Assembly: GCA_020351895.1 (NCBI GenBank)
Contig: CP070672.1
Location: forward strand, 129,819 to 165,973
Origin: Thermoplasmata archaeon
Lineage (GTDB): Archaea > Thermoplasmatota > Thermoplasmata > GCA-020350865
DNA length: 36,155 nt
Direction: 5' to 3'
Both the position numbers and the translations under genes were made by a program. The notes beneath the pieces are model-generated. The model saw only the letters and a list, made by a program, of their open reading frames with translations. It did no database searches and had not been told where the DNA came from. Of this stretch, positions 5,194 to 33,986 are shown one piece after another (the stretch's first letter is position 1; each line of letters begins with the position of its first letter).

Positions 5194-5251
5194 CCATATT
5201 GAATGATAGTTTTTGAAAAATGGATAATTTGATATGTGTGAGGGATTACAC

Positions 5252-5995
5252 ATGGCTCATGGGGAAGGAACCGAAGTAAAAAAGGATTCTTCTAAGCCCA
5301 AGGTAAGGGTAATAGCACCCATAGAGGGTCCTGAGAAAAGGGCTCAGATGGCTCCCATTAAAGTAACTGAATCCATATCACGCATGTGTACCTATCATCC
5401 CAACATACCTGCCATTTATATCTGCACCAAATGCTCAAAGTCCATGTGCATAAGTTGTGCCTTGCCATACGGTCATCTTTTCCTATGTCCACAATGCTAC
5501 ACACCACCAAAGCCAATGGAGGTCGAGAAGAAAAAGACAGAGCCAAAAAAGCCGCCTTTGGAATCCATAATGGGCCTTTTTGGGGCCCTTCTCATAATTG
5601 TGGGATTCTTTTTACCATGGGCCACATCGGACTACCAGTCACCAGATTTTGAGGAACATTTCGATTCAGTGATCTCGGGTTTCACAATAGCAGGTGATTA
5701 CCCAGACGTGTCTTTGGTTTTCATAATGGCGATTCTGATTGTGATTATCGAATTTCTTCTATTGATCCTTTCCACTTCTCCTATGTTTACTGGAAAACCC
5801 CCAATTGGCATCAGGCTTCTGCCCATGTTTCTTTGCTTTATCGTTTTAATTGTTCTGATTGAGATCCTGTTCAGAGCGGAGAGCCTCATGTCCAATATTC
5901 ATGTGGGCTGGTTTGTATGTTTATTTGGAGCAGCCATCATTCTGTTTGGAACCGTAATGGAGATATGGAAGCACTACAAGGGCATCGAGGAGTGA
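5252..5995 (+). CDS. B-box zinc-finger membrane protein (paralog 1)
   Basis: The 247-residue protein has a basic, proline-containing N-terminus, a B-box-like binuclear zinc finger (Cys46, His49, Cys58, Cys61, Cys66, Cys69, Cys79, Cys82; spacing C-x2-H-x8-C-x2-C-x4-C-x2-C), then four hydrophobic segments (about 105-127, 150-172, 185-206, 214-238). The finger precedes the membrane part, so it is probably cytoplasmic. I prefer ATG 5252 over ATG 5234 because GAGGG stands 8 nt before it. B-boxes are protein-interaction modules of TRIM ubiquitin ligases; the neighbouring ubiquitin-like operon makes a link attractive, but that is inference. Confidence 0.8.
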   Translation: MAHGEGTEVKKDSSKPKVRVIAPIEGPEKRAQMAPIKVTESISRMCTYHPNIPAIYICTKCSKSMCISCALPYGHLFLCPQCYTPPKPMEVEKKKTEPKKPPLESIMGLFGALLIIVGFFLPWATSDYQSPDFEEHFDSVISGFTIAGDYPDVSLVFIMAILIVIIEFLLLILSTSPMFTGKPPIGIRLLPMFLCFIVLIVLIEILFRAESLMSNIHVGWFVCLFGAAIILFGTVMEIWKHYKGIEE

Positions 5996-6012
5996 TTCTA
6001 TGATTTCGAAGG

Positions 6013-6020
6013 ATTTAAAT
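6013..6020 (+). promoter_or_regulatory. TATA-like box for B-box paralog 2
   Basis: ATTTAAAT at 6013-6020, just after the stop of B-box paralog 1, would start transcription near 6042, about 20 nt before ATG 6062. A second AT-rich element, CTATATATA at 6042-6050, is too close to the start to act as its TATA box. Confidence 0.4.
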
Positions 6021-6061
6021 AACTATAAACTGATGTTAATTCTATATATAATCAGGAATTG

Positions 6062-6832
6062 ATGGGTATGGTCGAGGAAAATAGGGCAATTGGGGCCAAG
6101 AAGGGGCAATCAAAGGTTGCACATTCAAAAACAAGCGGTAACAAGACCAAACCCCCACCTCCAGGATCAGGTGGGAGGCCTGGCATAAAGACGAAGCCGG
6201 GAATAAGATTAAAGGGAGGCATCCCTGACCCTGGCATGTGCGCATATCACAAGGAATTGCCAGCTGGCTTCATCTGCAATAAATGTGGGAAGTCCATATG
6301 CCAAAGCTGCTCAATAAGATACGGTCAAGTAGTTTTCTGTCCTCAATGCTCTCCTTTCCCTGGTGGATATCAGCCTTATGCCTATCCCTATCCTTCCTAT
6401 TACCCATACTACCCGTATTATTATCCACAGTATTACAGGCAGCAGACTAATGTAGCCTCGGTTGGAGGCCTGCTCGTCATATTTGCCGGTATCCTGGGCT
6501 TTCTCTACATCGCAACAATAGTGATGCTTCCTTCAGGTTTCGGATTCATTGATCCTTTCACGTTCGGGTCCGCAGAAGCACTGTTCTGTTTGAGCTTCCC
6601 CTTGATATCATCAACCATAGCCGTTGTTGGGGGGCTTCACGGTTACCATAAAACGAACTTTTCAATTGCAGTGGTGGGAGGCATATTCAGCCTATTTGTT
6701 GTTGGCTTCTTCATTGGATCGCTTCTTGGTTTCATTGGCCTTCTTCTTATAGGAACTGGAAGGTATGAATTCGAGGATGTGAAGTCACAGATGCCACAGC
6801 AACCGAGTCAACCTGGGCAACCTGGCTATTGA
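6062..6832 (+). CDS. B-box zinc-finger membrane protein (paralog 2) with Tyr/Pro-rich linker
   Basis: The 256-residue protein has a basic, low-complexity N-terminus (about 1-58), a B-box-like finger (Cys60, His63, Cys72, Cys75, Cys80, Cys83, Cys93, Cys96) with the same spacing as its neighbours, a Tyr/Pro-rich linker (about 97-130), and several hydrophobic segments (about 136-158, 175-195, 203-222, 225-245). The C-terminus is a Gln/Pro/Gly tail. ATG 6062 and ATG 6068 are both possible; an in-frame TTG stands at 6059. It follows paralog 1 in the same direction by about 65 nt and converges with the third paralog, suggesting local duplication. Function is unknown; a membrane-tethered adaptor or ligase cofactor is an inference. 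Confidence 0.78.
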   Translation: MGMVEENRAIGAKKGQSKVAHSKTSGNKTKPPPPGSGGRPGIKTKPGIRLKGGIPDPGMCAYHKELPAGFICNKCGKSICQSCSIRYGQVVFCPQCSPFPGGYQPYAYPYPSYYPYYPYYYPQYYRQQTNVASVGGLLVIFAGILGFLYIATIVMLPSGFGFIDPFTFGSAEALFCLSFPLISSTIAVVGGLHGYHKTNFSIAVVGGIFSLFVVGFFIGSLLGFIGLLLIGTGRYEFEDVKSQMPQQPSQPGQPGY

Positions 6833-6914: not shown

Positions 6915-7856
6915 TTAAACAGGTCCTCGCTCATCCTTTGTGGTTCCTTCCCCTAGTCTTCCCCCAATGGAATCTGAGATCCGTGATTCATCCACTATTT
7001 TTTGTTGTCGAGTGAATAAATAGTAAATAACAACCAAAATCACCCCAAAAATGATCATTGCGTAAAATACCAAATCAATAGAAATGGTGTGGTCGATGTT
7101 GGAGATATTGGGTAGATTGTTGTTGTACTCTCTTATTACTTCATTGTGTGTTCTCTCGTCCTCATCCACATGCAGCGTTATAGAAACTGTGTCACCGACA
7201 TGATAGTCCCGCTCGAGGTCAGCATCGAAAATAAGAGTAAAGTCATTATCATCTTTTCCTGTACTATCGAACCACAGTCGAGTAATAGGGCCATATGATG
7301 GATCCCGTTCAATGGATCTTCTGACTATTTTATCTCGAATTACGATTACATCACCGGGTCTGTAATCCTTGAAATTATAACTCCCTGTTTCGGGGCCCGG
7401 GCCGTCAGGGTCCTTTTGATATTCCTCCATGAGGCTTTCGAACTCTGCGGCGCTCATGGAAGTCAAAGGCCAGTAAATCAAAACAAATATCAAGCCGATT
7501 ATTATGAGGATAACACCTATTGAAAACAGGGCCTTATACCACCCAATATCTCTTTTGGTTTCCTGTGGTGGGGGAGGTGGTGGTATCTGGGTCTCAAAGG
7601 GAGCGCACTGGGGACAGAAGAATACCTCTCCAAGATTCTTTGCGCAGGTTACGCACACGCTTTTACCGCAGGAGGTGCAGATATAGGAAGCAGGCTTTGC
7701 AGGATGATAGTAACATTTGCCCTGCCTCACCACTTTTACGGCTTGGGGACTCGGTTTGAAGGGTTTTATTACCTTGACCTTCATTTCTGAGGGCTCATCT
7801 GGTAAAAGGGATGATTCTTCCCCGCCGATTTTGTCTCCTGGGTCCCCTTCTTCCAT
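6915..7856 (-). CDS. B-box zinc-finger membrane protein (paralog 3) at the 3' end of the ubiquitin-like operon
   Basis: The 313-residue protein has an acidic N-terminus, a KVKVIKP segment resembling the KVRVIAP of paralog 1, a B-box-like finger (Cys48, His51, Cys60, Cys63, Cys68, Cys71, Cys81, Cys84), a polyproline linker, one membrane segment (about 105-128), a roughly 135-residue extracytoplasmic part that may be a small beta barrel (PGDVIVIRDKI, YHVGDTVSITLHV), and a second membrane segment (about 265-285) with a cytoplasmic tail. I chose ATG 7856 because GGTGAG precedes it by about 5 nt; ATG 7868 is in frame. It begins 43 nt after the E1 stop and has its own TATA-like box, so it may be both co-transcribed and separately transcribed. 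Confidence 0.8.
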   Translation of the reverse strand: MEEGDPGDKIGGEESSLLPDEPSEMKVKVIKPFKPSPQAVKVVRQGKCYYHPAKPASYICTSCGKSVCVTCAKNLGEVFFCPQCAPFETQIPPPPPPQETKRDIGWYKALFSIGVILIIIGLIFVLIYWPLTSMSAAEFESLMEEYQKDPDGPGPETGSYNFKDYRPGDVIVIRDKIVRRSIERDPSYGPITRLWFDSTGKDDNDFTLIFDADLERDYHVGDTVSITLHVDEDERTHNEVIREYNNNLPNISNIDHTISIDLVFYAMIIFGVILVVIYYLFTRQQKIVDESRISDSIGGRLGEGTTKDERGPV

Positions 7857-7884
7857 GGCTCTCACCATCCTATTATATACATTC

Positions 7885-7899: not shown

Positions 7900-8916
7900 T
7901 TACTTTTCTTCATTTTCCAGGGAAACGGTTTTTAAAGAGTCCTTTCCACAGACAAAACAGCCCATATTTCTACTGAGTGGCATTATTGAATAATTGCTCT
8001 TCAGAAAGTCCATCAAAAGAACTCCCTTTAAAGTGGGCAAGCCTGCTATGATCTTCATTGCCTCGTTGGCCTGCACCCCTGCAACAATGGAGCCTACAGT
8101 GGAAAAGGAGGCAATGGCTCCGAACTCGAGGCCCTCGCATGGATTTGAAAGCTCCATTATCTCGGCATACCTATCCATTGGGATATTGCATGCTAGACAC
8201 GGTCCATTAGGTATGTATGTCTGAATTCTGCCTTGAAACTCCTTAACACCTCCATCGATTAGAGGAATGGCATTCTTGACACAGAAAGAGACCAGCCAAA
8301 TCCTGGTTGGCATGTTGTCCAAGGCACTTAGAATCACGTCACATTTTAATTGCTCAGAATCGCATTCCTCCACTCTGGCAGATAGTGCTTCTATCTCTGC
8401 ATAGGGGCTGTTTGTTCCGATCTTTTCCGCCAGAACCTCTGCCTTGTTCCTGCCGATGTCCTCCTTTTCAAATAGGCCCCTGCTCACATTGGAGAACTCC
8501 ACATCATCATAATCAACTATCAACACCTTGCCAAAACCCAGCCACACAAGGTTTTTTACGATCTCATTTCCCAAAGCCCCGGCTCCCACAACCAGGGCTT
8601 TTGCCTCTCTCAACAGCCTTTGTTTATCTTTGAGTGCTATCATCTGCCTTGCCCAGATGTAGTCAACAATCACGATTTTTAAGGGTTTTTCAAGTTCCTC
8701 CCTCTCATCCTTATAATCCTCTAGCTCCTCGGCGGAAATTGGAATCAGGTCCTCATCCACATCCACGAATATCAGGTTGGTAAATTCGGGTTCGATTCCC
8801 AGCTTTTTGCAGATCTTGTCCTTTAGATCCTCCTCGCTCTCATAGTTTACCTTAAAAGAAGCTACAGAGGGCATCACTGCCTTGATCCTCTTATTATTTT
8901 GTTGGTTTTCAGTCAT
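7900..8916 (-). CDS. E1-like ubiquitin-activating enzyme (ThiF/MoeB/Uba4 superfamily) with N-terminal beta-grasp-like extension
   Basis: The 338-residue protein has the ATP-binding GAGALG at 111-116, Asp135 and the YDDVEFSNVSRGLF motif, Lys158, the ALDNMPTR motif at 198-205, two CxxC zinc pairs (240/243 and 320/323), and Cys260 in SNPCEGLEFG, which aligns with the thioester cysteine of MOCS3/Uba4-type E1s. It should adenylate the C-terminal glycine of the ubiquitin-like protein encoded two genes upstream and pass it to the E2. Residues 15-85 form an extra domain with a possible beta-grasp or PB1-like pattern (SFKVNYE, LKDKICKKLGI, VDVDEDLIPISAEEL). ATG 8916 overlaps the E2 stop (ATGA) and has AGGAG 7 nt upstream, so translation is probably coupled. 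Confidence 0.9.
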   Translation of the reverse strand: MTENQQNNKRIKAVMPSVASFKVNYESEEDLKDKICKKLGIEPEFTNLIFVDVDEDLIPISAEELEDYKDEREELEKPLKIVIVDYIWARQMIALKDKQRLLREAKALVVGAGALGNEIVKNLVWLGFGKVLIVDYDDVEFSNVSRGLFEKEDIGRNKAEVLAEKIGTNSPYAEIEALSARVEECDSEQLKCDVILSALDNMPTRIWLVSFCVKNAIPLIDGGVKEFQGRIQTYIPNGPCLACNIPMDRYAEIMELSNPCEGLEFGAIASFSTVGSIVAGVQANEAMKIIAGLPTLKGVLLMDFLKSNYSIMPLSRNMGCFVCGKDSLKTVSLENEEK

Positions 8917-9410
8917 TCTTTTTTCTCCTGTTCCCACTCCACAATGGGCTCAAGAAAGACCCTTTTTGGAAATCCATAGGCCTTGCAAACCTTTGCTGCA
9001 GAAATGCATTTTTGATTGGGATATGTGTTGTCTGGGTTCGGATCCGAGAGAAGAAAATAGAGGGCATTAACCACTGCAGGCAATGTGGTTTTCGGGGTCC
9101 ATTCTTTGCCTAAGATGCTTATGCACACCATACCCTTTTTTTGGGGTATGATATTGGGATGGGGGATATCGGTAATCCAGGTGACTGCAGGAGGTTTGAA
9201 GGGATGAAGTGAATGAAGCTCCATTTTGAACTTGTGCCATTTCACATACTCTGTGAAGGGCCAAATGCCCTGTTTGGCCAGGGTTTTCACATGGCCCCTC
9301 TTGCAACGCACCATACCCGAAAACAGCGCATCTCCCATCCTTGATACCAAGGGAAACTGCTGCTTTAGATATTCATATTCGTCGTCTATCTTTTTTATGT
9401 TCAAAGCCAT
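8913..9410 (-). CDS. E2-like ubiquitin-conjugating enzyme (UBC fold)
   Basis: The 165-residue protein carries the E2 hallmark block: HPN at 84-86, the presumed thioester Cys96 in GMVCISILGKEW, WTP at 104-106, and LLSDPNPD downstream, as in eukaryotic E2s. The length is close to that of a classical single-domain E2. It would accept the ubiquitin-like protein from the adjacent E1 and transfer it to lysines of targets, perhaps with help from another factor. An N-terminal Cys36/His40 pair (CKRGH) is extra. Its TGA overlaps the E1 ATG, and the ubiquitin-like gene ends 32 nt upstream, so the three form one transcription unit. I see no RING domain in or fused to it. Confidence 0.92.
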   Translation of the reverse strand: MALNIKKIDDEYEYLKQQFPLVSRMGDALFSGMVRCKRGHVKTLAKQGIWPFTEYVKWHKFKMELHSLHPFKPPAVTWITDIPHPNIIPQKKGMVCISILGKEWTPKTTLPAVVNALYFLLSDPNPDNTYPNQKCISAAKVCKAYGFPKRVFLEPIVEWEQEKKE

Positions 9411-9442
9411 CCCCAGAAGGATGAGATCATTAATACCTATTC

Positions 9443-9688
9443 TTACTTTCCACCTACAATGTCCAGGGGCATTATGGCAAGTTGGCTATTTTCCGCGATT
9501 CCCAGCTCTGCAATGGTTCTGTTTTCATCCAATACTTCTCCACCATACATCAGGGCCACACCGGAACCATCTATACCGAATGCCCTGCAGACCTCTCTCT
9601 TCAGATCCTTTATCCTATGATTGGGAAGTACATCTATCTCTGCCAGCCCTGCCTCTTCCCCTATGGGTGCCTGTACCATTACTTTCAT
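9443..9688 (-). CDS. Ubiquitin-like modifier protein with C-terminal Gly-Gly-Lys
   Basis: The 81-residue protein matches ubiquitin along its length: MKVMVQAP at the start, IKDLKREVCRAFGI for the central helix, LMYGGEVLDENRTIAELGI for strands 3 to 4, and NSQLAIMPLDIVGG at the end. The diglycine (79-80) is followed by one lysine, so the last residue must be cut off before activation; the adjacent JAMM protease is the natural candidate. Lysines are at 2, 27, 30 and 81, and ubiquitin's Arg72/Arg74 positions are not basic here. I prefer ATG 9688 because it aligns with ubiquitin Met1 and has AGGGGG upstream; ATG 9697 is in frame and adds three residues. Confidence 0.92.
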   Translation of the reverse strand: MKVMVQAPIGEEAGLAEIDVLPNHRIKDLKREVCRAFGIDGSGVALMYGGEVLDENRTIAELGIAENSQLAIMPLDIVGGK

Positions 9689-9725
9689 GTCTTTCATCCC
9701 CCTAATTCTCTTTCTAAACTATTTT

Positions 9726-11015
9726 CTATCGATTATGGAGTATGTTAACCGTTATCATCTCCTCATCCATATATAGATTCCTATCCTCAGCCTCGACTTT
9801 GATTGTATATGTGCCGTTTCGGAATTGGTTGGTGTCCCAGTTGGTTACATAAACAAGCTCCCCTACATACCTGGTTTCACCTATTTTACTCCAATTTATA
9901 GTCGAGTTCTCATAATAAAATCCGACACTGTATATATTGTTCTCATTATCTTTCACCTCTGCATAAATAGTGATGTTTCCATCAATTGTCTGTCTATTTC
10001 TAGGGTCTAAAAACCTCACAGATGGCGGGTCTGGGGTGTTGTCAATAATAAAAGGCTCTGAATCCTTTTCCCAGGTATGATCCAGGGAATCTGAGAAGTT
10101 CACCTTGATCTGATGAATTCCTTCGGAATATCTATTGGTACTGAATATAAGGGTGTATGTATCATTGACAGGTGCTGAATCGTTTCCCAGAAACACCCAG
10201 CCTCCACCTCTTAGGCTCAAATAGAAACTTAATCCTTCCCCTGTGATTTTTCCTTCCACAACTGTTACATTGGCATGAATTTCTATCAAATTATCAAATA
10301 TGGAAACATTCTGCTGGTTCTTTTCTCTTTCACCTACAAGCGAGACATTGTCAACACTGGAGAACTTAGGCTCTTCTTGGATGTACCTCCACAAAATAAA
10401 ACTCCCAATGGCCACACATACTATGGCAACAGCGAGTCCCACTGCTATCAATTTCGTACTCGAGCTTGTGGGTTCAAATGGAGGGGGCATCACTACCTTT
10501 GTTCTCCTTGCTTTTTTTTTGGCCTTTTTGGGAATTTCAGGGGGAGATGAGAATCTCTCTGGTATCATCTCTTCCTCCTCATCATAAACATGTACCTGAT
10601 TTTTCTCCAGCTGGATCGTACCCTCTGGATCAAGAATTGTAAAGAAACCGAAATCCTCATCGTCAGGATCCACGATCAATGCAGTGACTTTGGAGGAAAA
10701 CTGCTGAAGGGTATTTTGGGTGTTGACGTCTGTTTGGGACATGAATATGCCGAAGCCTGGATGGGAGTGATACCAGCCAACGATGGTTCCCGATATCTCG
10801 CCTTTCAGTATCTTGTCTGTCACCTCTGCAATGGTTTTTGGAGGTAAGGAGGCTCTCGTATTATCTGATTCATGCTCACCCGAAACAGCGTCTTCAATCA
10901 GTATGGTATGTTCCTCGATATTGCCCACAAGAATTCCGATGATCTCCTTATCCGTTGATTTCGCCCTATCCATTACCTTGTTTAGAACGCTCCTGGAGAT
11001 GCTGACATAAAACAT
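9726..11015 (-). CDS. Membrane-anchored JAMM/MPN+ metalloprotease with Ig-like ectodomain
   Basis: The 429-residue protein begins with an MPN+ domain (about 1-145) holding the complete JAMM site: Glu24, His83-Ser-His85-Pro, Ser93 and Asp96. This Zn protease fold, as in Rpn11 and CSN5, cuts isopeptide bonds or C-terminal extensions of ubiquitin-like proteins. A proline/basic linker (KKAKKKARR at 163-171) leads to a membrane segment (189-209), then an ectodomain of about 215 residues with at least two Ig-like units and many N-x-S/T sites. The positive flank puts the protease in the cytoplasm. It is the first gene of the operon, ending 29 nt before the ubiquitin-like protein's first ATG, so it probably processes and recycles that modifier. 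Confidence 0.92.
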   Translation of the reverse strand: MFYVSISRSVLNKVMDRAKSTDKEIIGILVGNIEEHTILIEDAVSGEHESDNTRASLPPKTIAEVTDKILKGEISGTIVGWYHSHPGFGIFMSQTDVNTQNTLQQFSSKVTALIVDPDDEDFGFFTILDPEGTIQLEKNQVHVYDEEEEMIPERFSSPPEIPKKAKKKARRTKVVMPPPFEPTSSSTKLIAVGLAVAIVCVAIGSFILWRYIQEEPKFSSVDNVSLVGEREKNQQNVSIFDNLIEIHANVTVVEGKITGEGLSFYLSLRGGGWVFLGNDSAPVNDTYTLIFSTNRYSEGIHQIKVNFSDSLDHTWEKDSEPFIIDNTPDPPSVRFLDPRNRQTIDGNITIYAEVKDNENNIYSVGFYYENSTINWSKIGETRYVGELVYVTNWDTNQFRNGTYTIKVEAEDRNLYMDEEMITVNILHNR

Positions 11016-17394: not shown

Positions 17395-18708
17395 ATGAAA
17401 AGCAGAATCCAGCATGGGGGAGTATATCTTTCTATCTTCGCTTTAGTATTTCTCGTAGCAAGCAGTCTTTTTAGTGTTAACTCTTCAGCAGATTGGCCTG
17501 GATTCCTGTACGATGCCCAACATACGGGTTTCACAACATCCTCGGCACCGGAGGATGTAGAGGTGCTCTGGACATATGAGACAGGTGGGGCAGTGCTGTC
17601 CTCTCCTGCAGTTACCGATGGTATAGTGTATGTTGGTAGTGATGATGAATATCTCTATGCCCTCGATGCGGAAACCGGTGAATTACAATGGCAATTCAAG
17701 ACCCTGGGCCTTATTGAGTCCTCTCCCTTAGTGGATGGAAATGTGGTGTATGTTGGCTCTAACGATCGAAACCTATACGCTGTTAATACTGAAACTGGCA
17801 AAAGAATCTGGCAATATCCTACCTTGGGTGAAATTAAAACCTCACCAACGCTATGGAAGGGATATGTTTTCATAGGTTCGGATGACACCAGGCTGTATGC
17901 AATTAATGCAAATACCGGGCTTAAAGAATGGGATTACACCACTGGTAATATAGTACAGAATTCTGCTGCGGCCTGGGGAGATATGGTTATCATAGGTGGT
18001 TGTGACGGTATACTGACAAGCCTCAACGTATACTCGGGGGAGGAGGTTTGGACATACGATACAGGGGGAAATTACATAACAACCTCCCCCACAATTTACG
18101 ATGGCAAGATATTCTTTGGAAACATTGAGCCTAAGATGTTCTGCGTGGACCTATTTAATGGTGAAGAGATATGGACATACCAACTTCAGGATGTGGCGGC
18201 ATCCTCACCTGTGATCGGGTACGATATGATATTCTTTGGTAGCAAAGACGGCTATGTCAGGGCCTTAGATACCGACACAGGAGATCTTATTTGGGAGTTC
18301 GAAACAAATGGAGGTGTCGATGCTTCCCCTTCCATAGCCGATGAGAAGGTTTTAATAGGTTCCAGCGATGGAACTTTTTATGCCCTTAATACCAGCGATG
18401 GTGGATTGTTGTGGTCGTATCCCATAGGAGGGGAAATAAAATCCTCAGCAGCCATATCTGATGATTGTGTATTTGTGGGTTCCAAGTCCAATGAAATATA
18501 TGCTTTTGAACCAAAAGAACAAACACAAAATGGCAACGGTCAAAATGGAGATGGAAACGGAGGAACCACAAACGGCGATTCCGGATCTGACAAAGGAATA
18601 TTTGGGGAAGCAACCCCGCTTATTTTAGGCGGCGTTGCGGTTGCAATCTTGGTAGTCATTATATTGATTGTTGTCATACTATCTAAAAAACGAAAACAAA
18701 ACACTTAA
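17395..18708 (+). CDS. PQQ-like beta-propeller protein with C-terminal membrane anchor
   Basis: The 437-residue protein has a signal peptide (about 8-30) followed by about eight repeats around the pattern SSPAVTDGIVYVGSDD-YLYALDAETGELQW (about 38-375), typical of PQQ-like/BamB-type propellers. A Gln/Asn/Gly-rich linker (about 378-402) leads to one membrane segment (about 408-430) and a basic KKRKQNT tail. It is therefore exposed outside and anchored. No catalytic calcium or PQQ site can be claimed. Position after the FtsX-type permease could mean a functional pair, but the separate promoter weakens the operon argument. Confidence 0.85.
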   Translation: MKSRIQHGGVYLSIFALVFLVASSLFSVNSSADWPGFLYDAQHTGFTTSSAPEDVEVLWTYETGGAVLSSPAVTDGIVYVGSDDEYLYALDAETGELQWQFKTLGLIESSPLVDGNVVYVGSNDRNLYAVNTETGKRIWQYPTLGEIKTSPTLWKGYVFIGSDDTRLYAINANTGLKEWDYTTGNIVQNSAAAWGDMVIIGGCDGILTSLNVYSGEEVWTYDTGGNYITTSPTIYDGKIFFGNIEPKMFCVDLFNGEEIWTYQLQDVAASSPVIGYDMIFFGSKDGYVRALDTDTGDLIWEFETNGGVDASPSIADEKVLIGSSDGTFYALNTSDGGLLWSYPIGGEIKSSAAISDDCVFVGSKSNEIYAFEPKEQTQNGNGQNGDGNGGTTNGDSGSDKGIFGEATPLILGGVAVAILVVIILIVVILSKKRKQNT

Positions 18709-18744
18709 GTGAAAGTAAAAGTGTGTTACTTTTGAGAGGCCGAG

Positions 18745-18754
18745 TATTATAAAT
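18745..18754 (+). promoter_or_regulatory. TATA box for the NifB-like gene
   Basis: TATTATAAAT gives a transcription start near 18776 and a leader of about 21 nt that holds GGAG at 18784-18787, 9 nt before the TTG start. Confidence 0.5.
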
Positions 18755-18796
18755 AGGACTTAATAATGTACAACTTGTTAATCGGAGAAAATTTCC

Positions 18797-19531
18797 TTGG
18801 CATCTGAACCTTTTATGGAACTCGCTCAATCCCATCCGTGTTATGATGCTAATGCACACAACAGGATAGGCAGAATTCATCTTCCAGTGGCGCCCAAATG
18901 CAATATCGCCTGCAGGTTTTGTGATAGGAAAATCTCGCCCTATTATCATACCTCACGTCCGGGTTTGGCTCATTCTCTTTTACAACCTGAAGACGCCATT
19001 TTCGTGGTTGAAAATGCCATTGAAAAAAATCCACAGATAGAGGTTGTGGGAATATCCGGCCCCGGGGAGCCTCTATACAATGATGAAACTTACAAAACTC
19101 TAAAAATAGTCTCAGAGAATTTTCCCTTCTTGAAGTTGTGCATTTGCACAAATGGTTTGCTATTACCCGAAAAAACCAAAATACTGAGGGAACTGGGTGT
19201 GAAATCACTCACTATAACCATCAATGCAGTTGATCCTAAAATAGCCTCGAAACTATCATCCTTTTCCATTGTTGAGGGAAAAAAAGTAAGAGGCCTAGAA
19301 GGAGCCAGATTACTTGTTAATAGACAGTTAAAAGGTCTTGAAATCGCAGCAGAATTGGGTTTCTTAATAAAGATCAACACAGTTCTCATTCCAGAATTAA
19401 ACCTCACTCATATCAAGGACATCGCATATGAAGTTCAAAAACGCGGGGCATACCTGTTGAATATCATGCCCTTGATACCGTTGGGGAAGTTTGACAATTT
19501 AAAGGCCCCGACATGTGAGGAGCTAAGATGA
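18797..19531 (+). CDS. nifB: NifB-like radical SAM protein, ended early by an in-frame TGA
   Basis: The 244-residue product has the NifB HPCY motif (13-16), the radical-SAM triad Cys35/Cys39/Cys42 (CNIACRFC), SGPGEPL for SAM binding, and CTNG. NifB makes the FeS core (NifB-co) of nitrogenase-type cofactors from two Fe4S4 clusters. Translation starts at TTG 18797 with GGAG upstream. The frame stops at TGA 19529-19531, yet continues without further stop to 19630 and encodes the conserved NifB end CKQCRADSIG, so about 32 residues, including a CxxC pair thought to hold one precursor cluster, are lost or need readthrough. No nifHDK genes are in the window, so the role could also be outside nitrogen fixation. 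Confidence 0.85.
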   Translation: MASEPFMELAQSHPCYDANAHNRIGRIHLPVAPKCNIACRFCDRKISPYYHTSRPGLAHSLLQPEDAIFVVENAIEKNPQIEVVGISGPGEPLYNDETYKTLKIVSENFPFLKLCICTNGLLLPEKTKILRELGVKSLTITINAVDPKIASKLSSFSIVEGKKVRGLEGARLLVNRQLKGLEIAAELGFLIKINTVLIPELNLTHIKDIAYEVQKRGAYLLNIMPLIPLGKFDNLKAPTCEELR

Positions 19532-19630
19532 GCAAGAGAAACTAGCGAGGCTGTAATCCCCATATTTAGAGCATGCAAGCAATGCAGGGCAGATTCCATT
19601 GGAATCCCTGGGAAAGAAGATAAATATTAG
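19532..19630 (+). pseudogene. In-frame continuation of the NifB-like gene beyond the TGA
   Basis: Codons 246-277 follow the TGA in the same frame to TAG 19628-19630. They encode AREx-type residues and the CKQCRADSIGIPG motif, which is a hallmark of the NifB C-terminus. A single C-to-T change of an Arg codon (CGA to TGA) would explain the stop. A sequencing or assembly error, a recent nonsense mutation, or programmed readthrough are the choices; the window cannot decide. Confidence 0.75.
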
Positions 19631-19693
19631 ATACCATTTACCCCCTCCAATTCATTCAAAAACACCTGTTACATGGAGGTTGAGGTGCTTTCT

Positions 19694-20215
19694 TTGAGTG
19701 TACAAGACAACAATATGTCCAAAAAGGTACAAGGGAACAATGAAAGAAGAAAGAGGATTTTTCTTCATAATCTTCCAGAATATGTAATGTATGTTCTCGG
19801 CTCCATAATCATGGCATTTCTTGGAATATTGTACTTAATCGCCTATATCGTCTACGGTCTTGTAAGCACCCTCTGGTATATGAGGTTCGTGTGCACCTAT
19901 TGTCCGCATTATGATAAGATCAAATGTCCAAGTGGTTACGCAACAATAGCTGGAAAACTTTTCAAAAAAAGGGATGCTCGCAAATTTGAAATCATGTTCA
20001 AGAGACATATGGGTTCCGTCTTTTTATCTTGGTTCGCTCCAGTGATTGCAGGGATATACTTATTGGCGAACGAAATCACTTTAACTATGATCATCCTGCT
20101 TGTGGTTTTTGTAGTTGACGCCTTCATCATCCTTCCATGGGCATCGAGAAGATACGGATGTAATTACTGCGATCTAAGCGATAGATGCCCCTGGATGGGT
20201 CGCTATGGTAAGTGA
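19694..20215 (+). CDS. Cys-rich small membrane protein (paralog A)
   Basis: The protein of about 173 residues has a basic N-terminus, two hydrophobic segments (about 30-58), then a loop with CTYCPHYDKIKC and an AGKLFKKRD element, two more hydrophobic segments (about 112-150) and a C-terminal CNYCDLSDRCPW. The pattern CxxCP-x(5-6)-C plus CxxC-x(5)-CP suggests a metal or FeS site near the membrane. A homologous protein is encoded at 23448-23966. TTG 19694 is preferred because GAGGTG stands at 19681-19686; ATG 19673 and ATG 19715 share the frame. It lies 63 nt after the NifB-like gene's tail and may be co-transcribed with it. I do not recognise the family. Confidence 0.7.
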   Translation: MSVQDNNMSKKVQGNNERRKRIFLHNLPEYVMYVLGSIIMAFLGILYLIAYIVYGLVSTLWYMRFVCTYCPHYDKIKCPSGYATIAGKLFKKRDARKFEIMFKRHMGSVFLSWFAPVIAGIYLLANEITLTMIILLVVFVVDAFIILPWASRRYGCNYCDLSDRCPWMGRYGK

Positions 20216-20282
20216 TTTTTTCATCATTCCTATTTGCCCCTCCTTTCACCCCTCTTAAAATAATTCTTAAGAACCGCTATTG

Positions 20283-20384
20283 AATTTCTCATGAAATTTC
20301 ATTACTATATGTTAAAGAGGAACATTTTGGATCCCCTTAGAATTTTTCATGAAATTTGAACACTATATGTTAAAGAGGTACATT
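20283..20384. repeat. Two 44-bp direct repeats at the 3' end of the FG-GAP protein gene
   Basis: Copy 1 (20283-20326) and copy 2 (20341-20384) are 58 bp apart and differ at about five or six positions. Copy 2 includes the last codons and stop of the FG-GAP gene; copy 1 retains matching NVPL-stop codons outside the gene. Each copy includes a small palindrome around TTCATGAA. The arrangement looks like a tandem duplication of the gene's end, lying in the convergent spacer after the Cys-rich membrane protein gene. Confidence 0.6.
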
Positions 20385-23294
20385 CCAGACGATATCAACA
20401 TCTCTCATTGAATGTATCCAATAACCCATTCCAACTTCAAAATAATCCGAGGGTCCTATCTCTTCCCAACTCTGTGTCGCAGCATCATAAGTCCAAATTG
20501 AATCTACATCGGTATCGAAAAAGAGGTTGCCCAATGCATCATCCCGGAGCTTATCGGTTTTCGAAGGATAACCAACCAGATTCCATCCAGGCCTTATGGT
20601 GATAGATTGCCCCATGCCTATTTCGTTACCATTAACAGTTAATACAGTTCCTCCTGGTTGGATAACATAGATCCAGATTCCCATGGTATGATTCACATCT
20701 GTTAAATCAATCATTTCCGAGGGTTTTTGAGTATGATAGTGCTTCCAAGGATCGTTTGCATAACTTGAATCATAACACTGGACAGCATTGTACTGTCCAT
20801 CTATTGTTGAAAAGACTGAATCAACATTGGTTTCTGATTGTATTAGCGGTAGGGAGATGAGATTCCATCCCTCTGAAAGATCAATTTTATAAAATATCTG
20901 AGTTTGGGTTATGTAGACTTCGACACCATTTGCAGATGTTATGGCAATATCCAAAACACCATCGTTATTCACATCACCAAAGTCAACTCCCCAGTAGTTT
21001 CCTGCGGAGGGTAAATCGGGTAGTAATGCATCGGTCCATACCATGGAGCCTCCTTCGCCACCATTACCCATAGTCAGACTTATGCCATTATTTGTTCCCG
21101 AGGTACTTCCTGATAGAAGGTCAAGGTCACCATCATTATTAATGTCACCCAATTCAACACCTGCAAAAACACCTGATGTTGGGAGGCCACTTGATTCTTC
21201 GGTCCAATTCACATCTCCGTCTTTTCCCCCATCACTCGTATAAACACGGATGCCAAAATTTCCGGTGACCCATGCACCTATGGCGATATCCAGGTTCCCA
21301 TCATGGTTGACATCACCAAAGCATGCACCTAGTCCTCCCCCACCAGTATCAGGAATGCCGCTTTCGGGAGGTTGTAGATTCCATCCACCGTTGCCATCAC
21401 CTAGCCAAAACCTGAATCCCATCATGTGCCCTGTGGCAAACAGATCTGCTTTCCCATCATGATTCACATCCCCAAGGGCAACATCGTCATAACCTAGGTC
21501 TTGGGGAGGACCAGTATCACTGCCCCATCCCCCATCACCTGTTCCGTTCCAAATGTAGACTTTGTCTCTGGAACCCCCGCTCGGTTGATAATAACTGGAA
21601 GCAATATCTAAGTTGCCATCATTATTGATATCTCCGACATCCACCCCAGCGAGAGGTGTAGAGCTAACAGGACCCGTATCAGGCCCGAAACGACCAGTCC
21701 CATTGCCTAACCATACTCTGCCGAGATTCCCAGTGTTGTTTGCCGCAATCAAATCCAAATTGCCATCATGATTAATATCTGTCAATCTCACACCATTGTA
21801 GTTCTCACTTGATGGGATATCAGGATCAGATATAGTTTTCCAGACACCGTTTCCATTTCCCAACCATACCCCCACACCCAGGCCTGAGCTGCTTGCAGCT
21901 GCAATATCCAATTTCCCATCGTGATTTATATCACCAAAATCCACATCATACCATCCTGATCCCATTGGTAGGCCTGTTGAGGAATTACTCCACCCTGTTA
22001 TTGCCAAATCTGGCAAATTGCCTGCCCATATTTGAACACCTTGTGTAAATGTTGTGACTCCGATATCCAATCGCCCATCATTGTTGACATCGCCAAGACA
22101 TACATCTATAGCCTGGGTACCATCCGGTAAACCATCCCTTGCCGAAATCCAATCCAATGCTCCTCCCACACCCCCGTCTCCGAGCCATACCTCTAAATTT
22201 CCACCAGAATAATTCCCTGCCACCAGATCTAATTTCCCATCGTTGTTCACATCACCAAAAGAAATACCCATATGGCGATCTTGCGTCGTAAGACCATTTG
22301 ATTCCTCAACCCAGGAAAATCCGCCATCGCCACCGTTACCTTTGAAGAATCTAGCACCACCAGGATCCTTTACAAAAGCTATGTCCAGATTCCCATCATT
22401 GTTTGCATCTCCAAAACGAACTTGAGCATAGTTATCAGATATGGGTAAATCGGTCCCAGAATAAGCATCTGTCCAGAACGCCAAAGATCCAGATTCTCCA
22501 TTTCCAGTCCACACCTTCACACCTTCTCCGCTATGACTGGCAGCCAACACATCTAGATTCCCGTCATTATTAACATCACCAAAATCAACACCCCAATATT
22601 GAAGTGAAGAAGGCAGGCCATTTGAGGCGGGAGTCCATACAAAGCTTCCACCCAATCCTCCGTTGCTGGTCCAGACCCTGACACCGCCATCGGTACCTGC
22701 CACGATATCTATTGTTCCATTATTATCCACATCACCCAGTGCAACGCCATACCAATTAATAGCTGGGAGAGGACCTATTTGTGGAGTCCAGATCATCGTA
22801 CCACCTTGTCCACCGTTGCCAGTCCAAACACCTCTGTTACATATGATATCTAGATTTCCGTCCTTATTAAGATCATCCACCTCCAAATCGGGGTAATAGT
22901 TCGTGGTTGGAAGCCCTGTGGAATTCTCTGTCCATCCCCCATTTCCGTCACCCAAATAGCAATGAACACCATCCCGTGGTGTTTGACCAGAAGCAAATAT
23001 CACATCCAATTTTCCATCGTTGTTCACATCCCCAAAATCAATACTGTGATAATCATTTGTGCTCGGTAGCGATCCCGATAAAGAAGACCAGGAAGGAGTT
23101 GAGGATCTAACACCGTGCATTTTGGGTGGTAAAAGGTTTTCTTGAGGATTATCTACTTGGTTCAAATCCTCTTCTTTAAGCTCAACATAAGTCGATAAAG
23201 AGAATATATCCATGATGGAGGCGATTATGAGAATTGAAAACAAAATCACGATTCTCCTGCCAACAAGTCTTTTATTGCCCACTCCAGATTTCAT
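20370..23294 (-). CDS. Secreted FG-GAP/VCBS repeat protein with C-terminal GWN module
   Basis: The 974-residue protein has an N-terminal signal/anchor segment (about 14-35), then 14 repeats of the calcium-binding pattern FGDVNNDGKLDI spaced about 50-55 residues (about 85-810), which equals two seven-bladed integrin-like propellers. The last 160 residues (about 815-974) form a duplicated module with GWNLISLPL, DPWKHYH, GWNLVGYPS and MGYWIHS, shared with the proteins at 26802-28754 and 33987-36155. ATG 23294 has TGGAGG 6 nt upstream. Surface adhesion or a structural role is likely; no enzyme site is seen. The MKSGVGNK start resembles that of the two PQQ-propeller proteins downstream in the window. 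Confidence 0.85.
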   Translation of the reverse strand: MKSGVGNKRLVGRRIVILFSILIIASIMDIFSLSTYVELKEEDLNQVDNPQENLLPPKMHGVRSSTPSWSSLSGSLPSTNDYHSIDFGDVNNDGKLDVIFASGQTPRDGVHCYLGDGNGGWTENSTGLPTTNYYPDLEVDDLNKDGNLDIICNRGVWTGNGGQGGTMIWTPQIGPLPAINWYGVALGDVDNNGTIDIVAGTDGGVRVWTSNGGLGGSFVWTPASNGLPSSLQYWGVDFGDVNNDGNLDVLAASHSGEGVKVWTGNGESGSLAFWTDAYSGTDLPISDNYAQVRFGDANNDGNLDIAFVKDPGGARFFKGNGGDGGFSWVEESNGLTTQDRHMGISFGDVNNDGKLDLVAGNYSGGNLEVWLGDGGVGGALDWISARDGLPDGTQAIDVCLGDVNNDGRLDIGVTTFTQGVQIWAGNLPDLAITGWSNSSTGLPMGSGWYDVDFGDINHDGKLDIAAASSSGLGVGVWLGNGNGVWKTISDPDIPSSENYNGVRLTDINHDGNLDLIAANNTGNLGRVWLGNGTGRFGPDTGPVSSTPLAGVDVGDINNDGNLDIASSYYQPSGGSRDKVYIWNGTGDGGWGSDTGPPQDLGYDDVALGDVNHDGKADLFATGHMMGFRFWLGDGNGGWNLQPPESGIPDTGGGGLGACFGDVNHDGNLDIAIGAWVTGNFGIRVYTSDGGKDGDVNWTEESSGLPTSGVFAGVELGDINNDGDLDLLSGSTSGTNNGISLTMGNGGEGGSMVWTDALLPDLPSAGNYWGVDFGDVNNDGVLDIAITSANGVEVYITQTQIFYKIDLSEGWNLISLPLIQSETNVDSVFSTIDGQYNAVQCYDSSYANDPWKHYHTQKPSEMIDLTDVNHTMGIWIYVIQPGGTVLTVNGNEIGMGQSITIRPGWNLVGYPSKTDKLRDDALGNLFFDTDVDSIWTYDAATQSWEEIGPSDYFEVGMGYWIHSMRDVDIVWNVPL

Positions 23295-23330
23295 GTTTTG
23301 CCTCCAATATTATATGAATGCAGGTTCCAT

Positions 23331-23340
23331 AATATAAATC
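23331..23340 (-). promoter_or_regulatory. TATA box for the FG-GAP protein gene
   Basis: Minus-strand GATTTATATT gives transcription near 23309, 15 nt before ATG 23294, so the TGGAGG site lies in a short leader. Confidence 0.5.
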
Positions 23341-23447
23341 ATTCGACTGCTGTTTAAAATCACCCTTTAGGTTCACAAGTTACTTGATCAAATTCCTTTG
23401 TATCAAGAGGAAACCTGGATAATATGGATTCACGCTGCCAGACCTTG

Positions 23448-23966
23448 TCAAGGACATTCTTTTCTCAATGGGCAGTTTTTACAGTACGTGAGCATTGGGA
23501 TAAAGGGAACTAGGACGAACCCAAAAATGGAAAATAGAATGAGTAAGCCCAGGAGAAATGTGGAAAAGTTCTGCATGAGTAGATAAATCCCTGCAATAAA
23601 TGGAATGAACCACAGAAGTGATAAGAGAGGCATAAACGTCTTGAACTTTTTTGGGAATAAGGTCTCATCCCTTTTTTGGAACAATTTTGCGGCAATATCT
23701 CCGAATCTTGTTGTGCAAGAAGTGGTCCCATACAATGGACAGTATACGCAAAGCAAACCTGCAAAGCCCAGGACATATAGACCACAGGATAAAACATATA
23801 ATATCATGATTAATAGGCCAAAATTATACATTATTATAGCGCCTAAGAACCAGGTAATCATGGCAGGTGTATCGTTTAATAGCGCTCTTTTAATTGAATA
23901 TGTAGGACACTTGCTGCAGAATTTTCTACCTTCGATACGACCGAGATGTTCGTCTACTTTCGTCAT
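23448..23966 (-). CDS. Cys-rich small membrane protein (paralog B)
   Basis: The 172-residue protein has an N-terminal FCSKCP motif (about 17-22), two hydrophobic segments (about 36-72), CVYCPLYGTTSC, an AAKLFQKRD element, two further hydrophobic segments (about 110-155) and C-terminal CKNCPLRKECP. It aligns with paralog A (about 19694-20215) through the CxxCP, KLF-KRD, F-P-IAGIYLL and final CxxC elements, and has an additional N-terminal CxxCP. The repeated CxxCP motifs suggest several metal or FeS centres or a redox-active protein at the membrane. It is encoded just upstream of the FG-GAP gene, on the same strand, with its own TATA box. The family is unknown to me. Confidence 0.7.
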   Translation of the reverse strand: MTKVDEHLGRIEGRKFCSKCPTYSIKRALLNDTPAMITWFLGAIIMYNFGLLIMILYVLSCGLYVLGFAGLLCVYCPLYGTTSCTTRFGDIAAKLFQKRDETLFPKKFKTFMPLLSLLWFIPFIAGIYLLMQNFSTFLLGLLILFSIFGFVLVPFIPMLTYCKNCPLRKECP

Positions 23967-24010
23967 TTCTTTCCACTACGCATTTTGGTGAGAGGCGGTT
24001 ATAGATTGCA

Positions 24011-24020
24011 TTTATAATAA
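24011..24020 (-). promoter_or_regulatory. TATA box for Cys-rich membrane protein B
   Basis: Minus-strand TTATTATAAA would start transcription near 23990, some 24 nt before ATG 23966. Confidence 0.45.
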
Positions 24021-24110
24021 ATCTTATTCAACCGAAACTAGGCAAATCCATCCTGCAATAAAGATGATATCGTTATTCATGCGAAGGAATCCGCAATCAA
24101 CTTTTAGTTG

Positions 24111-24245
24111 TTAACATTCACGAGACTGTGGTTCCTCCTTTGGAATCTCATAAGCTAATGGAGGCTCTTCTTCATCGTCAGGAGGGGGTAATTTATCCTC
24201 AGGTATTTTTTCATCGCAAGGAAGAGGTAGCTCCTCCCCTTCTAG
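24111..24245 (-). pseudogene. Eroded acidic tail continuing beyond the stop of the 840-type propeller protein
   Basis: After TAG 24246-24248 the same frame stays open for 44 codons to TAA 24111-24113 and encodes an acidic, proline-rich stretch including PEDKLPPPDDEEEPP. That matches the cytoplasmic tail of the giant protein at 29005-33873. It therefore looks like a former C-terminal tail cut by a stop codon. Confidence 0.65.
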
Positions 24246-26741: not shown

Positions 26742-26770
26742 GTGCTTCGCCTTGGTCATTAACTGCAATT

Positions 26771-26777
26771 TTTATAT
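26771..26777 (-). promoter_or_regulatory. TATA box for the propeller/Ig protein gene (near-leaderless)
   Basis: Minus-strand ATATAAA is centred 33 nt before ATG 26741, which predicts a leader of only about 7 nt and supports that start. Confidence 0.5.
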
Positions 26778-26801
26778 CATTTTTGAAAACGCATCTCTCT
26801 T

Positions 26802-28754: not shown

Positions 28755-28791
28755 ACTCAGCCCCCAATATACATTGTAAGGAGATTTGAGC

Positions 28792-28801
28792 AATATAAAT
28801 T
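28792..28801 (-). promoter_or_regulatory. TATA box for the propeller/GWN protein gene
   Basis: Minus-strand TAATTTATAT predicts transcription near 28771 and a 17-nt leader holding the GGGGG site before ATG 28754. Confidence 0.5.
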
Positions 28802-28866
28802 ATTCGGTATATTCATTGAATTTCATAATGGTGATGCGGAAAGTCATAGATTCTTTTGAATTATTT

Positions 28867-29004
28867 CTAATCTTCAGAGGATGGAGGTTCTTCATCATCA
28901 TGTGGAGGTAAATCATCTTTAAGGATTTATTCGTCATCCGGAGGAGGTAATTCATACTCGAGAAATTCTTCATCCTCATGAGAAGGTAAATCATCCTCAA
29001 GAGT
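28867..29004 (-). pseudogene. Eroded acidic repeat tail continuing beyond the stop of the giant protein
   Basis: After TAA 29005-29007 the same frame continues with LEDDLPSHEDEE and YELPPPDDE, meets a second TAA at 28927-28929, then reads KDDLPPHDDEEPP and ends at TAG 28867-28869. These are further copies of the ELPPPDDE repeat of the protein's tail. In both TAA positions the expected codon is GAA after GATGAA, so single G-to-T changes explain the stops. Confidence 0.7.
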
Positions 29005-33873: not shown

Positions 33874-33905
33874 ATCGATCTCCCACTCCGTATCCTTCTT
33901 GTTTC

Positions 33906-33914
33906 CTATAAATT
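33906..33914 (-). promoter_or_regulatory. TATA box for the giant surface protein gene
   Basis: Minus-strand AATTTATAG is centred about 37 nt before ATG 33873, which gives a leader of about 11 nt. A second AT box (TATTTATACT, 33929-33938) is a weaker alternative. Confidence 0.45.
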
Positions 33915-33986
33915 GGAATAATTTGGATAGTATAAATAATTTGTTAAAAAATTATTTTGTCTGTAATGGAGTAGCTTAGATTTGGA

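What the first reader, a model, noticed from the sequence alone, without database searches (positions are those of the whole stretch)
7900..11015. Compact archaeal ubiquitin-like conjugation operon: JAMM, Ubl, E2, E1
Four consecutive minus-strand genes encode all core parts of a ubiquitin-type system: a JAMM protease with an intact Glu/His/His/Asp site, a ubiquitin-like protein ending in GG plus one residue, an E2 with HPN and Cys96, and an E1 with ATP site, zinc pairs and Cys260. E2 and E1 overlap by ATGA, other gaps are about 30 nt, and one promoter is seen. Such complete sets are known from Caldiarchaeum and Asgard archaea and from bacterial Bil/6A-6E-type operons; the surrounding genes here suggest another lineage (Thermoplasmatota-like), which would broaden the range of genuine E1-E2-Ubl systems.
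Basis: partly seen in the sequence, partly recalled or inferred. Interest (0 to 1): 0.95.

Follow-up and report, generated by a model that had tools for sequence, protein, structure and literature searches.

The report
Membrane-tethered archaeal ubiquitin-like tagging cassette
This stretch of archaeal DNA carries adjacent genes for a ubiquitin-like tag, its two loading enzymes and a tag-removing enzyme; the remover is predicted to sit in the cell membrane with part of it outside the cell, so ubiquitin-style tagging likely exists in a membrane-bound form in archaea far from the known eukaryote-like lineages.

Summary
In detail: JAMM, Ubl (ending GGK), E2 (HPN, Cys96) and E1 (Cys260, four zinc Cys) lie in one intact minus-strand run at 7900-11015, each matching its Pfam family above the cut-off. 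The JAMM has one predicted membrane segment and a sequon-rich Ig-like half predicted to lie outside. A fifth gene 31 nt behind E1 encodes a B-box zinc-finger membrane protein, a likely E3-like partner. The E1 has an N-terminal ubiquitin-like domain and lacks a C-terminal one. This E2 type occurs in 1 of 300 sampled genomes of the nearest relative's class, that relative itself, and in 14 of 256 of a Bathyarchaeia class; there Ubl, E2 and E1 are adjacent in 14 of 14, a B-box gene beside them in 13, the JAMM domain in 6. The Ubl is the best conserved part and keeps GG in all 16 loci. E2 systems are not new to this class: 96 of 300 genomes have an E2. Best reading: an E1-E2-Ubl cascade acting at the membrane, a new variant of the archaeal ubiquitin system. 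No biochemistry was done; substrates are unknown.

The parts
9726..11015 (-). JAMM deubiquitinase-like gene, 429 aa: JAB domain aa 4-119, one predicted transmembrane segment about aa 189-207, Ig-like (Big_7) C-terminal half
   Evidence: Pfam JAB 3.5e-15 and Big_7 2.5e-11; closest solved relative 6fjv, 2.1e-19, the N11-like protein of Caldiarchaeum; E24/H83/H85/S93/D96 invariant in 20 of 20
10395..10451 (-). predicted transmembrane segment of the JAMM protein (aa 189-207)
   Evidence: hydropathy maximum 2.8; sequons 0 before and 10 after it in the window protein
9443..9697 (-). free ubiquitin-like modifier, 84 aa (81 from the second ATG), ends ...IVGGK
   Evidence: Pfam ubiquitin 1.3e-9; GG at or near the C-terminus in 16 of 16 loci
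9449..9454 (-). diglycine of the modifier (one Lys follows)
   Evidence: sequence; conserved
8913..9410 (-). E2 ubiquitin-conjugating enzyme, 165 aa, HPN and Cys96
   Evidence: Pfam UQ_con 6.6e-17; UBE2D-type PDB hits 3e-12; H84, P85, N86, C96 invariant in 23 of 23
7900..8916 (-). E1, 338 aa: N-terminal Ubl-like domain, ThiF adenylation domain, two zinc Cys pairs, Cys260; no C-terminal domain after the last zinc Cys
8659..8892 (-). N-terminal ubiquitin-like domain of E1 (aa 9-86), without diglycine
   Evidence: profile match to the modifier, hhalign probability 96.4, E 1.1e-9; Pfam ubiquitin 3e-9 to 3e-8 in three of three Bathyarchaeia homologues tested; strand-strand-helix-strand order in the model. 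Pfam on the window E1 alone gives only a weak PB1 hit
6915..7868 (-). fifth gene of the run: B-box zinc finger and two predicted transmembrane segments with a domain between them, 317 aa (relatives begin at 7856)
   Evidence: Pfam zf-B_box 2.8e-5, 24.6 bits against cut-off 24.1; eight Cys/His ligands invariant in 15 of 15; 31 nt behind E1; a TATA-like box lies between
7605..7715 (-). B-box-like zinc finger (aa 52-88), C-x2-H-x8-C-x2-C-x4-C-x2-C-x9-C-x2-C
6059..6832 (+). convergent B-box multi-transmembrane protein, like the first gene of the Bathyarchaeia cassette
   Evidence: zf-B_box 6.3e-6; BLASTP 9e-19 to L007 5298-6089
5234..5995 (+). second convergent B-box multi-transmembrane protein
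   Evidence: zf-B_box 1.5e-4, below cut-off; BLASTP 1e-13 to the L060 protein, over the zinc-finger region only

Best explanation
The locus encodes a ubiquitin-like modifier with its E1, E2 and a Rpn11-like JAMM protease, and it likely works as a conjugation-deconjugation cycle held at the inner face of the cell membrane. Inferred steps: the JAMM trims GGK to GG; the E1, as a UBA5/MoeB-like dimer, adenylates the Ubl and holds it on Cys260; its N-terminal Ubl-like domain recruits the E2 in place of the missing C-terminal domain; the E2 takes the Ubl on Cys96; the B-box membrane protein acts as E3-like scaffold or ligase; membrane-associated proteins are the likely targets; and the membrane-anchored JAMM removes the tag. 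Shown: the genes, their domains and residues, their conserved linkage in Thermoplasmatota and Bathyarchaeia, and sequence signals that put the JAMM domain inside and its Ig-like half outside.
For: Four Pfam matches above cut-off and key residues conserved in relatives. The Ubl is the best conserved part between phyla: window against 12 Bathyarchaeia loci, Ubl 57-61%, E2 46-52%, E1 38-46%, JAMM 35-46% (6 loci); it keeps GG plus 0-8 residues in 16 of 16 loci. Ubl, E2 and E1 are adjacent in 14 of 14 Bathyarchaeia genomes with this E2. One E2 relative, P0043, is a direct Ubl-GG-E2 fusion. JAMM topology, in 57 of the 59 closest JAMM proteins (window included; 2 dropped for no clear membrane segment; 120 were listed of 337 found): sequons 26 before the segment (37 expected from shuffles) and 460 after it (154 expected); more positive charge on the N side in 51 of 57. 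B-box link: at E 0.01, 14 of 14 genomes with the cassette against 3 of 20 without, Fisher 1e-6; above the curated cut-off, 9 of 14 against 3 of 20, p 0.005; 20 of 34 B-box hits lie within 7 kb of the E2, in 13 of 14 genomes. The Caldiarchaeum cascade works in vitro (PMC5654768, section 6).
Against: No biochemistry. The nearest named relative, G001, has the cassette but no B-box at E 0.01. Of 14 Bathyarchaeia genomes, only 6 show the JAMM domain in the operon, plus one cut by a contig end (G324); in 3 (G002, G331, G332) a membrane protein remains without it, in G334 there is neither, and in 3 the contig ends too soon. G334 keeps a tail after GG yet has no JAMM in the operon. Shorter JAMM frames lie elsewhere in many of these genomes, so anchoring of the protease is not universal. 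The B-box model is poor, pLDDT 60.6, and the RING_5 match is sub-threshold. The B-box gene may have its own promoter. No target is known; ESCRT-III shows no association (11 of 15 with, 20 of 20 without). Sequon, charge and B-box counts come from related, not independent, sequences.
Confidence: 0.72

Rival explanations
1. The four genes form a working E1-E2-Ubl-JAMM cascade, but the membrane parts and B-box neighbours are incidental: the system is an ordinary cytosolic archaeal ubiquitin system and the membrane segment only localises the protease.
For: A type with a short JAMM lacking a strong hydrophobic stretch (23 of 24) exists in the same class; JAMM frames lie outside the operon in many Bathyarchaeia and 4 of 14 lack the JAMM domain in it; G001 lacks B-box.
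Against: A membrane segment is found in 57 of the 59 closest JAMM proteins; a membrane protein stays in the operon in three genomes that lost the JAMM domain; the B-box link is strong.
Confidence: 0.15
2. A sulfur-carrier or cofactor system: the ThiF-like E1 activates the Ubl for thiocarboxylate formation, with MoaD/ThiS/SAMP-like chemistry.
For: E1 is close in fold to MoeB and ThiF; NCBIfam ThiF, MoeB and UbaA models match, though far below cut-off.
Against: A canonical E2 with HPN and Cys sits between Ubl and E1; the JAMM is nearest to Rpn11 among solved structures; the Ubl matches ubiquitin, not ThiS or MoaD, in Pfam.
Confidence: 0.05
3. An antiviral conjugation system of the Bil, CBASS or 6A-6E kind.
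For: PADLOC E1-E2 and JAB models match the ThiF core and the JAMM domain.
Against: E2 and Ubl match no PADLOC model. Of 18 other window proteins scanned, only an FtsX-like transporter and a radical SAM protein gave weak hits, to CARF-fusion and viperin models. The cassette recurs in the same order in Bathyarchaeia. A pattern-based scan of IMG/VR found no relative.
Confidence: 0.06

Closest known systems
Caldiarchaeum subterraneum and Asgard E1-E2-Ub-RING-Rpn11 operons (PMC5654768: passages and section 6; PMC6043591: passages and section 6)
   Same: Ubl with a short tail after GG, ThiF-type E1, canonical E2 and Rpn11-like JAMM in one gene cluster; type-A E1 groups with three Asgard E1 rows on our tree, 100/99, with a long-branch warning
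   Different: JAMM predicted membrane-anchored with an Ig-like outer half; no RING found in the genes scanned, B-box proteins instead; E1 has an N-terminal Ubl-like domain and, in the window, no C-terminal one. Caldiarchaeum E1 and E2 were not compared directly
Bathyarchaeia type-A cassette (L002-L007, L056-L066; no paper describing it was found)
   Same: B-box-TM, JAMM-TM, Ubl, E2, E1, B-box order in the fullest loci (L006, L007, L056, L059, L060, L066); same Ubl family, 57-61% identity
   Different: E1 keeps an extra C-terminal domain; the B-box gene behind E1 has no predicted membrane segment there and two here; JAMM domain absent from the operon in 4 of 14
E1-Ubl-E2-JAMM operons in the class of G001 (type B, L016-L044)
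   Same: the same enzyme classes, adjacent
   Different: other gene order, short JAMM without a strong hydrophobic stretch in 23 of 24, no B-box in 29 loci, E1 and E2 in other clades
Bacterial Bil (BilABCD) (PMC11354881, passages)
   Same: E1, E2, JAB and Ubl logic
   Different: BilD has an inactive and an active adenylation domain and BilB a CEHH motif; here one ThiF domain and an HPN/Cys E2
RING-less B-box E3 ligases such as TRIM16 (PMC3357404: start of abstract in the listing)
   Same: B-box without a RING, in a ubiquitin setting
   Different: archaeal, membrane-bound, ligand set CHC6; E3 activity untested

Membership tests
Archaeal E1-E2-Ubl-JAMM conjugation system | ubiquitin-fold modifier with C-terminal GG | tested here: met
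Archaeal E1-E2-Ubl-JAMM conjugation system | ThiF-fold E1 with ATP site and active-site Cys | tested here: met
   by sequence and model only
Archaeal E1-E2-Ubl-JAMM conjugation system | E2 of the UQ_con family with HPN and catalytic Cys | tested here: met
Archaeal E1-E2-Ubl-JAMM conjugation system | JAMM with intact metal site, Rpn11-like | tested here: met
Archaeal E1-E2-Ubl-JAMM conjugation system | covalent Ubl-protein conjugates | not testable with these tools
   needs biochemistry
Caldiarchaeum/Asgard-type ubiquitin operon | small RING finger (srfp) E3 in the cluster | tested here: not met
   no RING above cut-off in the four genes or the three B-box genes; zf-RING_5 16.8 bits against 27.9; the rest of the genome could not be searched
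Caldiarchaeum/Asgard-type ubiquitin operon | C-terminal UBL domain on E1 | tested here: not met
   window E1 ends 15 residues after the last zinc Cys; Bathyarchaeia and Asgard rows go on
B-box zinc finger family (PF00643) | profile match and eight metal ligands | tested here: met
   24.6 bits against 24.1, only just above; ligands invariant in 15 of 15
E3 ubiquitin ligase | stimulates Ubl transfer from E2 | not testable with these tools
   inferred from linkage only
Bil (BilABCD) | E1 with inactive plus active adenylation domains | tested here: not met
   one ThiF stretch, aa 94-320
CBASS | CD-NTase and effector beside E1/E2 | tested here: not met
   none among 18 scanned window proteins; two large ORFs at 29005-36050 and a short one at 15-356 were not scanned
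SAMP/UbaA system | UbaA-type E1, desampylase, no E2 needed | tested here: not met
   UbaA 110.6 bits against 450, desampylase 36.5 against 130; an E2 is present

The most novel reading that the evidence does not exclude
A surface-gated ubiquitin circuit in archaea: the Ig-like outer half of the JAMM protease and the outer domain of the B-box protein sense the cell surface and, across one membrane, set how strongly a ubiquitin-like tag is put on or taken off proteins inside. That would be a receptor-type deubiquitinase paired with a receptor-type E3, run by an E1 that docks its E2 through an N-terminal ubiquitin domain.
Probability: 0.3. Interest if true: 0.9.

Novelty: new variant of a known kind. 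Interest (0 to 1): 0.74.

Why it matters
In the papers seen here, archaeal ubiquitin cascades are discussed mainly for Aigarchaeota and Asgard archaea as forerunners of the eukaryotic system. This locus shows an E1-E2-Ubl-JAMM branch in Thermoplasmatota and Bathyarchaeia with its own architecture: a predicted membrane-anchored protease, B-box rather than RING neighbours, and an N-terminal ubiquitin-like domain on E1. If it works as read, ubiquitin-style tagging was tied to membranes in prokaryotes, and E1-E2 docking by a ubiquitin fold has a second layout. The proteins are small enough for in vitro reconstitution, so the question is directly testable.

Tried and rejected
ESCRT link: Snf7-family matches in 11 of 15 genomes with the cassette and in 20 of 20 Bathyarchaeia without it, so no association.

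Fused Ubl-E2 as a general modifier precursor: 29 of 73 E2 relatives carry an N-terminal Ubl, but 28 of them lack GG at the junction; only P0043 keeps it. So the fused Ubl is mostly a fixed domain, not a precursor.

Viral carriage: 14 stretches in IMG/VR matched a pattern, none encodes a relative. Defence setting: see the rival. B-box fold search: not run, since the model was too weak. Foldseek and VIA on E1 were filled by the ThiF core and show at most 50 rows, so they say little on the N-terminal domain; no match of that domain to a ubiquitin structure was seen there, which excludes nothing.

Literature: no held paper describing this cassette, an N-terminal Ubl on an E1, or a membrane JAMM in archaea was seen in the listings. 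The library lacks most subscription papers. The supplements of PMC5654768, which show a Cluster III, could not be read and may include members; the Burroughs 2011 paper is not held.

The two Bathyarchaeia genomes left out of the identity table (G331, G337) were read.
Full report
Observation. The four genes are real, intact and adjacent on the minus strand. The promoter claim is not supported by a crude scan.

Where it comes from. No whole genome is held for the window. Its own B-box and JAMM proteins are listed on a contig of 4,229,406 bases, the same length as the contig of P0035, named Thermoplasmata archaeon JSV09_09320. So the source is very likely that Thermoplasmata chromosome (inferred from the identical length). 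P0035 is a partial protein that groups with the Ubl-fused E2 class, so this genome seems to hold a second E2.

(1) The JAMM protein has a predicted membrane segment at about aa 189-207. I took the 59 closest JAMM proteins (window included) of 120 listed and 337 found; two (P0157, P0158) have no clear segment and were dropped. In the other 57, N-glycosylation sequons number 26 before the segment against 37 expected, and 460 after it against 154 expected. This places the JAMM domain inside and the other half outside. (2) A B-box zinc-finger protein with two predicted membrane segments starts 31 nt behind E1; its eight ligands are invariant in 15 of 15 rows. Two more B-box membrane proteins lie convergent at 5234-6832. 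(3) The E1 begins with a ubiquitin-like domain. Three of three Bathyarchaeia E1s tested give Pfam ubiquitin at 3e-9 to 3e-8. The window E1 alone gives only a weak PB1 hit, but the E1 N-terminal profile that includes it matches the modifier profile at 96.4% probability, and the model has the expected strand and helix order.

Relatives. The E2 profile found 11 loci in named genomes: one Thermoplasmata (L001), six Bathyarchaeota or unnamed archaea (L002-L007) and four that I know as Asgard (L008-L011, weak). Among 256 genomes of the class of G002 (the genome of L005, a Bathyarchaeota record), 14 have this E2 at 5e-67 or better. Among 300 of the class of G001 (the genome of L001), 96 have an E2 at 0.001, but G001 alone has this type, 5e-84 against 7e-21 for the next; with the JAMM profile, 1 of 400, again G001.

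The Bathyarchaeia cassette. In the 14 genomes, Ubl, E2 and E1 are adjacent in 14; a B-box gene is beside them in 13 (the contig of the other ends first); the JAMM domain is in the operon in 6. In G324 a JAMM piece lies at the contig end. In G002, G331 and G332 a membrane protein without the JAMM domain fills the place; G334 has neither; in G335, G337 and G338 the contig ends too soon. JAMM frames of 145-188 and 304-336 aa lie elsewhere in G002, G331, G332, G337 and G338, and further JAMM frames also in G003, G004 and G324, which keep the operon copy; whether they are soluble was not tested. G334 has a tail after GG and no JAMM in the operon, which does not fit simple dependence; a weak JAMM match (2.6e-13) lies elsewhere in it.

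B-box link. At E 0.01, 14 of 14 genomes with the cassette have PF00643 matches against 3 of 20 without it (the 20 shown of 242 without), Fisher 1e-6. Above the curated cut-off it is 9 of 14 against 3 of 20, p 0.005. Twenty of the 34 hits lie within 7 kb of the E2, in 13 of 14 genomes. G001 has none. Genomes of one clade are not independent, so the p values overstate.

Metagenomic contigs. So in related contigs JAMM and B-box can be neighbours while the E2 may be elsewhere, as in L001, where a Ubl-E2 fusion lies before the JAMM.

The modifier. The Ubl is the best conserved component between phyla and ends in GG with 0-8 extra residues in 16 of 16 loci. K30 is the only invariant lysine in 11 rows, so long chains of the usual kind look unlikely (inference).

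Trees. Type-A E1 (14 rows) is one clade, 100/98, grouping with three Asgard E1 rows, 100/99, apart from type B and a MoeB-like gene; window and L001 group at 100/98. Type-A E2 splits into a clade with the window, L001 and metagenomic rows (96/96) and a Bathyarchaeia clade (99/97), with P0043 outside both. The program warns of long branches, the root is a midpoint, and no Caldiarchaeum, eukaryotic or Bil rows were included.

Mechanism. Shown by sequence: domains, residues, linkage, membrane signals. Inferred: processing, adenylation, thioester relay, E2 docking by the N-terminal Ubl, E3-like role of the B-box, membrane targets. The Caldiarchaeum proteins do this chemistry in vitro: Rpn11 trims pro-ubiquitin, and E1 and E2 become modified (PMC5654768, section 6). 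[quoted passage not shown] PMC4327156 (passages) speaks of toolkits in three archaeal lineages, Euryarchaeota among them, where it names one marine group II genome with a DUB and RINGs. RING-less B-box proteins can act as E3 ligases in animals (TRIM16, PMC3357404, start of abstract).

Verdict. By sequence a genuine ubiquitin-type system, of a distinct and probably membrane-tethered variant shared by Thermoplasmatota and Bathyarchaeia.

Noticed in passing
L016-L044 (class of G001): Another E1-Ubl-E2-JAMM operon type is common: 96 of 300 genomes have an E2, one of them G001; of 29 loci read, 24 have a JAMM, 19 an E1, 17 both, none a B-box, within about 1.5 kb. The L028 Ubl ends EGGF.
   Followed up: partly
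L001:7767-8456 and 28 of the proteins P0001-P0073: E2 with a fixed N-terminal ubiquitin-like domain lacking GG in 28 of 73 E2 relatives, and a GG-bearing fusion in P0043. What a built-in Ubl does on an E2 is unexplained.
   Followed up: partly
L002:4734-6269, L005:6430-7707, L057:8595-9761: In place of the JAMM gene lies a membrane protein without the JAMM domain, ahead of a Ubl that ends exactly in GG.
   Followed up: partly
L002-L007, downstream of the cassette: In six of six loci a convergent large protein follows whose C-terminal tail looks by eye like a winged helix.
   Followed up: no
L001:7174-7647 and L001:11680-12135: Two related proteins with two hydrophobic stretches and C-terminal Cys pairs, by eye, flank the cassette in the genome that lacks B-box proteins; possible stand-ins.
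   Followed up: no
window 18797-19531: Radical SAM protein with a weak match to prokaryotic viperin models, 2.8e-9; may be an ordinary radical SAM enzyme.
   Followed up: no
window 19673-20215 and 23448-23966: Two small membrane proteins with Cys clusters, similar by eye, on opposite strands about 3 kb apart.
   Followed up: no
window 17395-36050: Several large, repeat-rich proteins that look by eye like surface proteins; not analysed.
   Followed up: no
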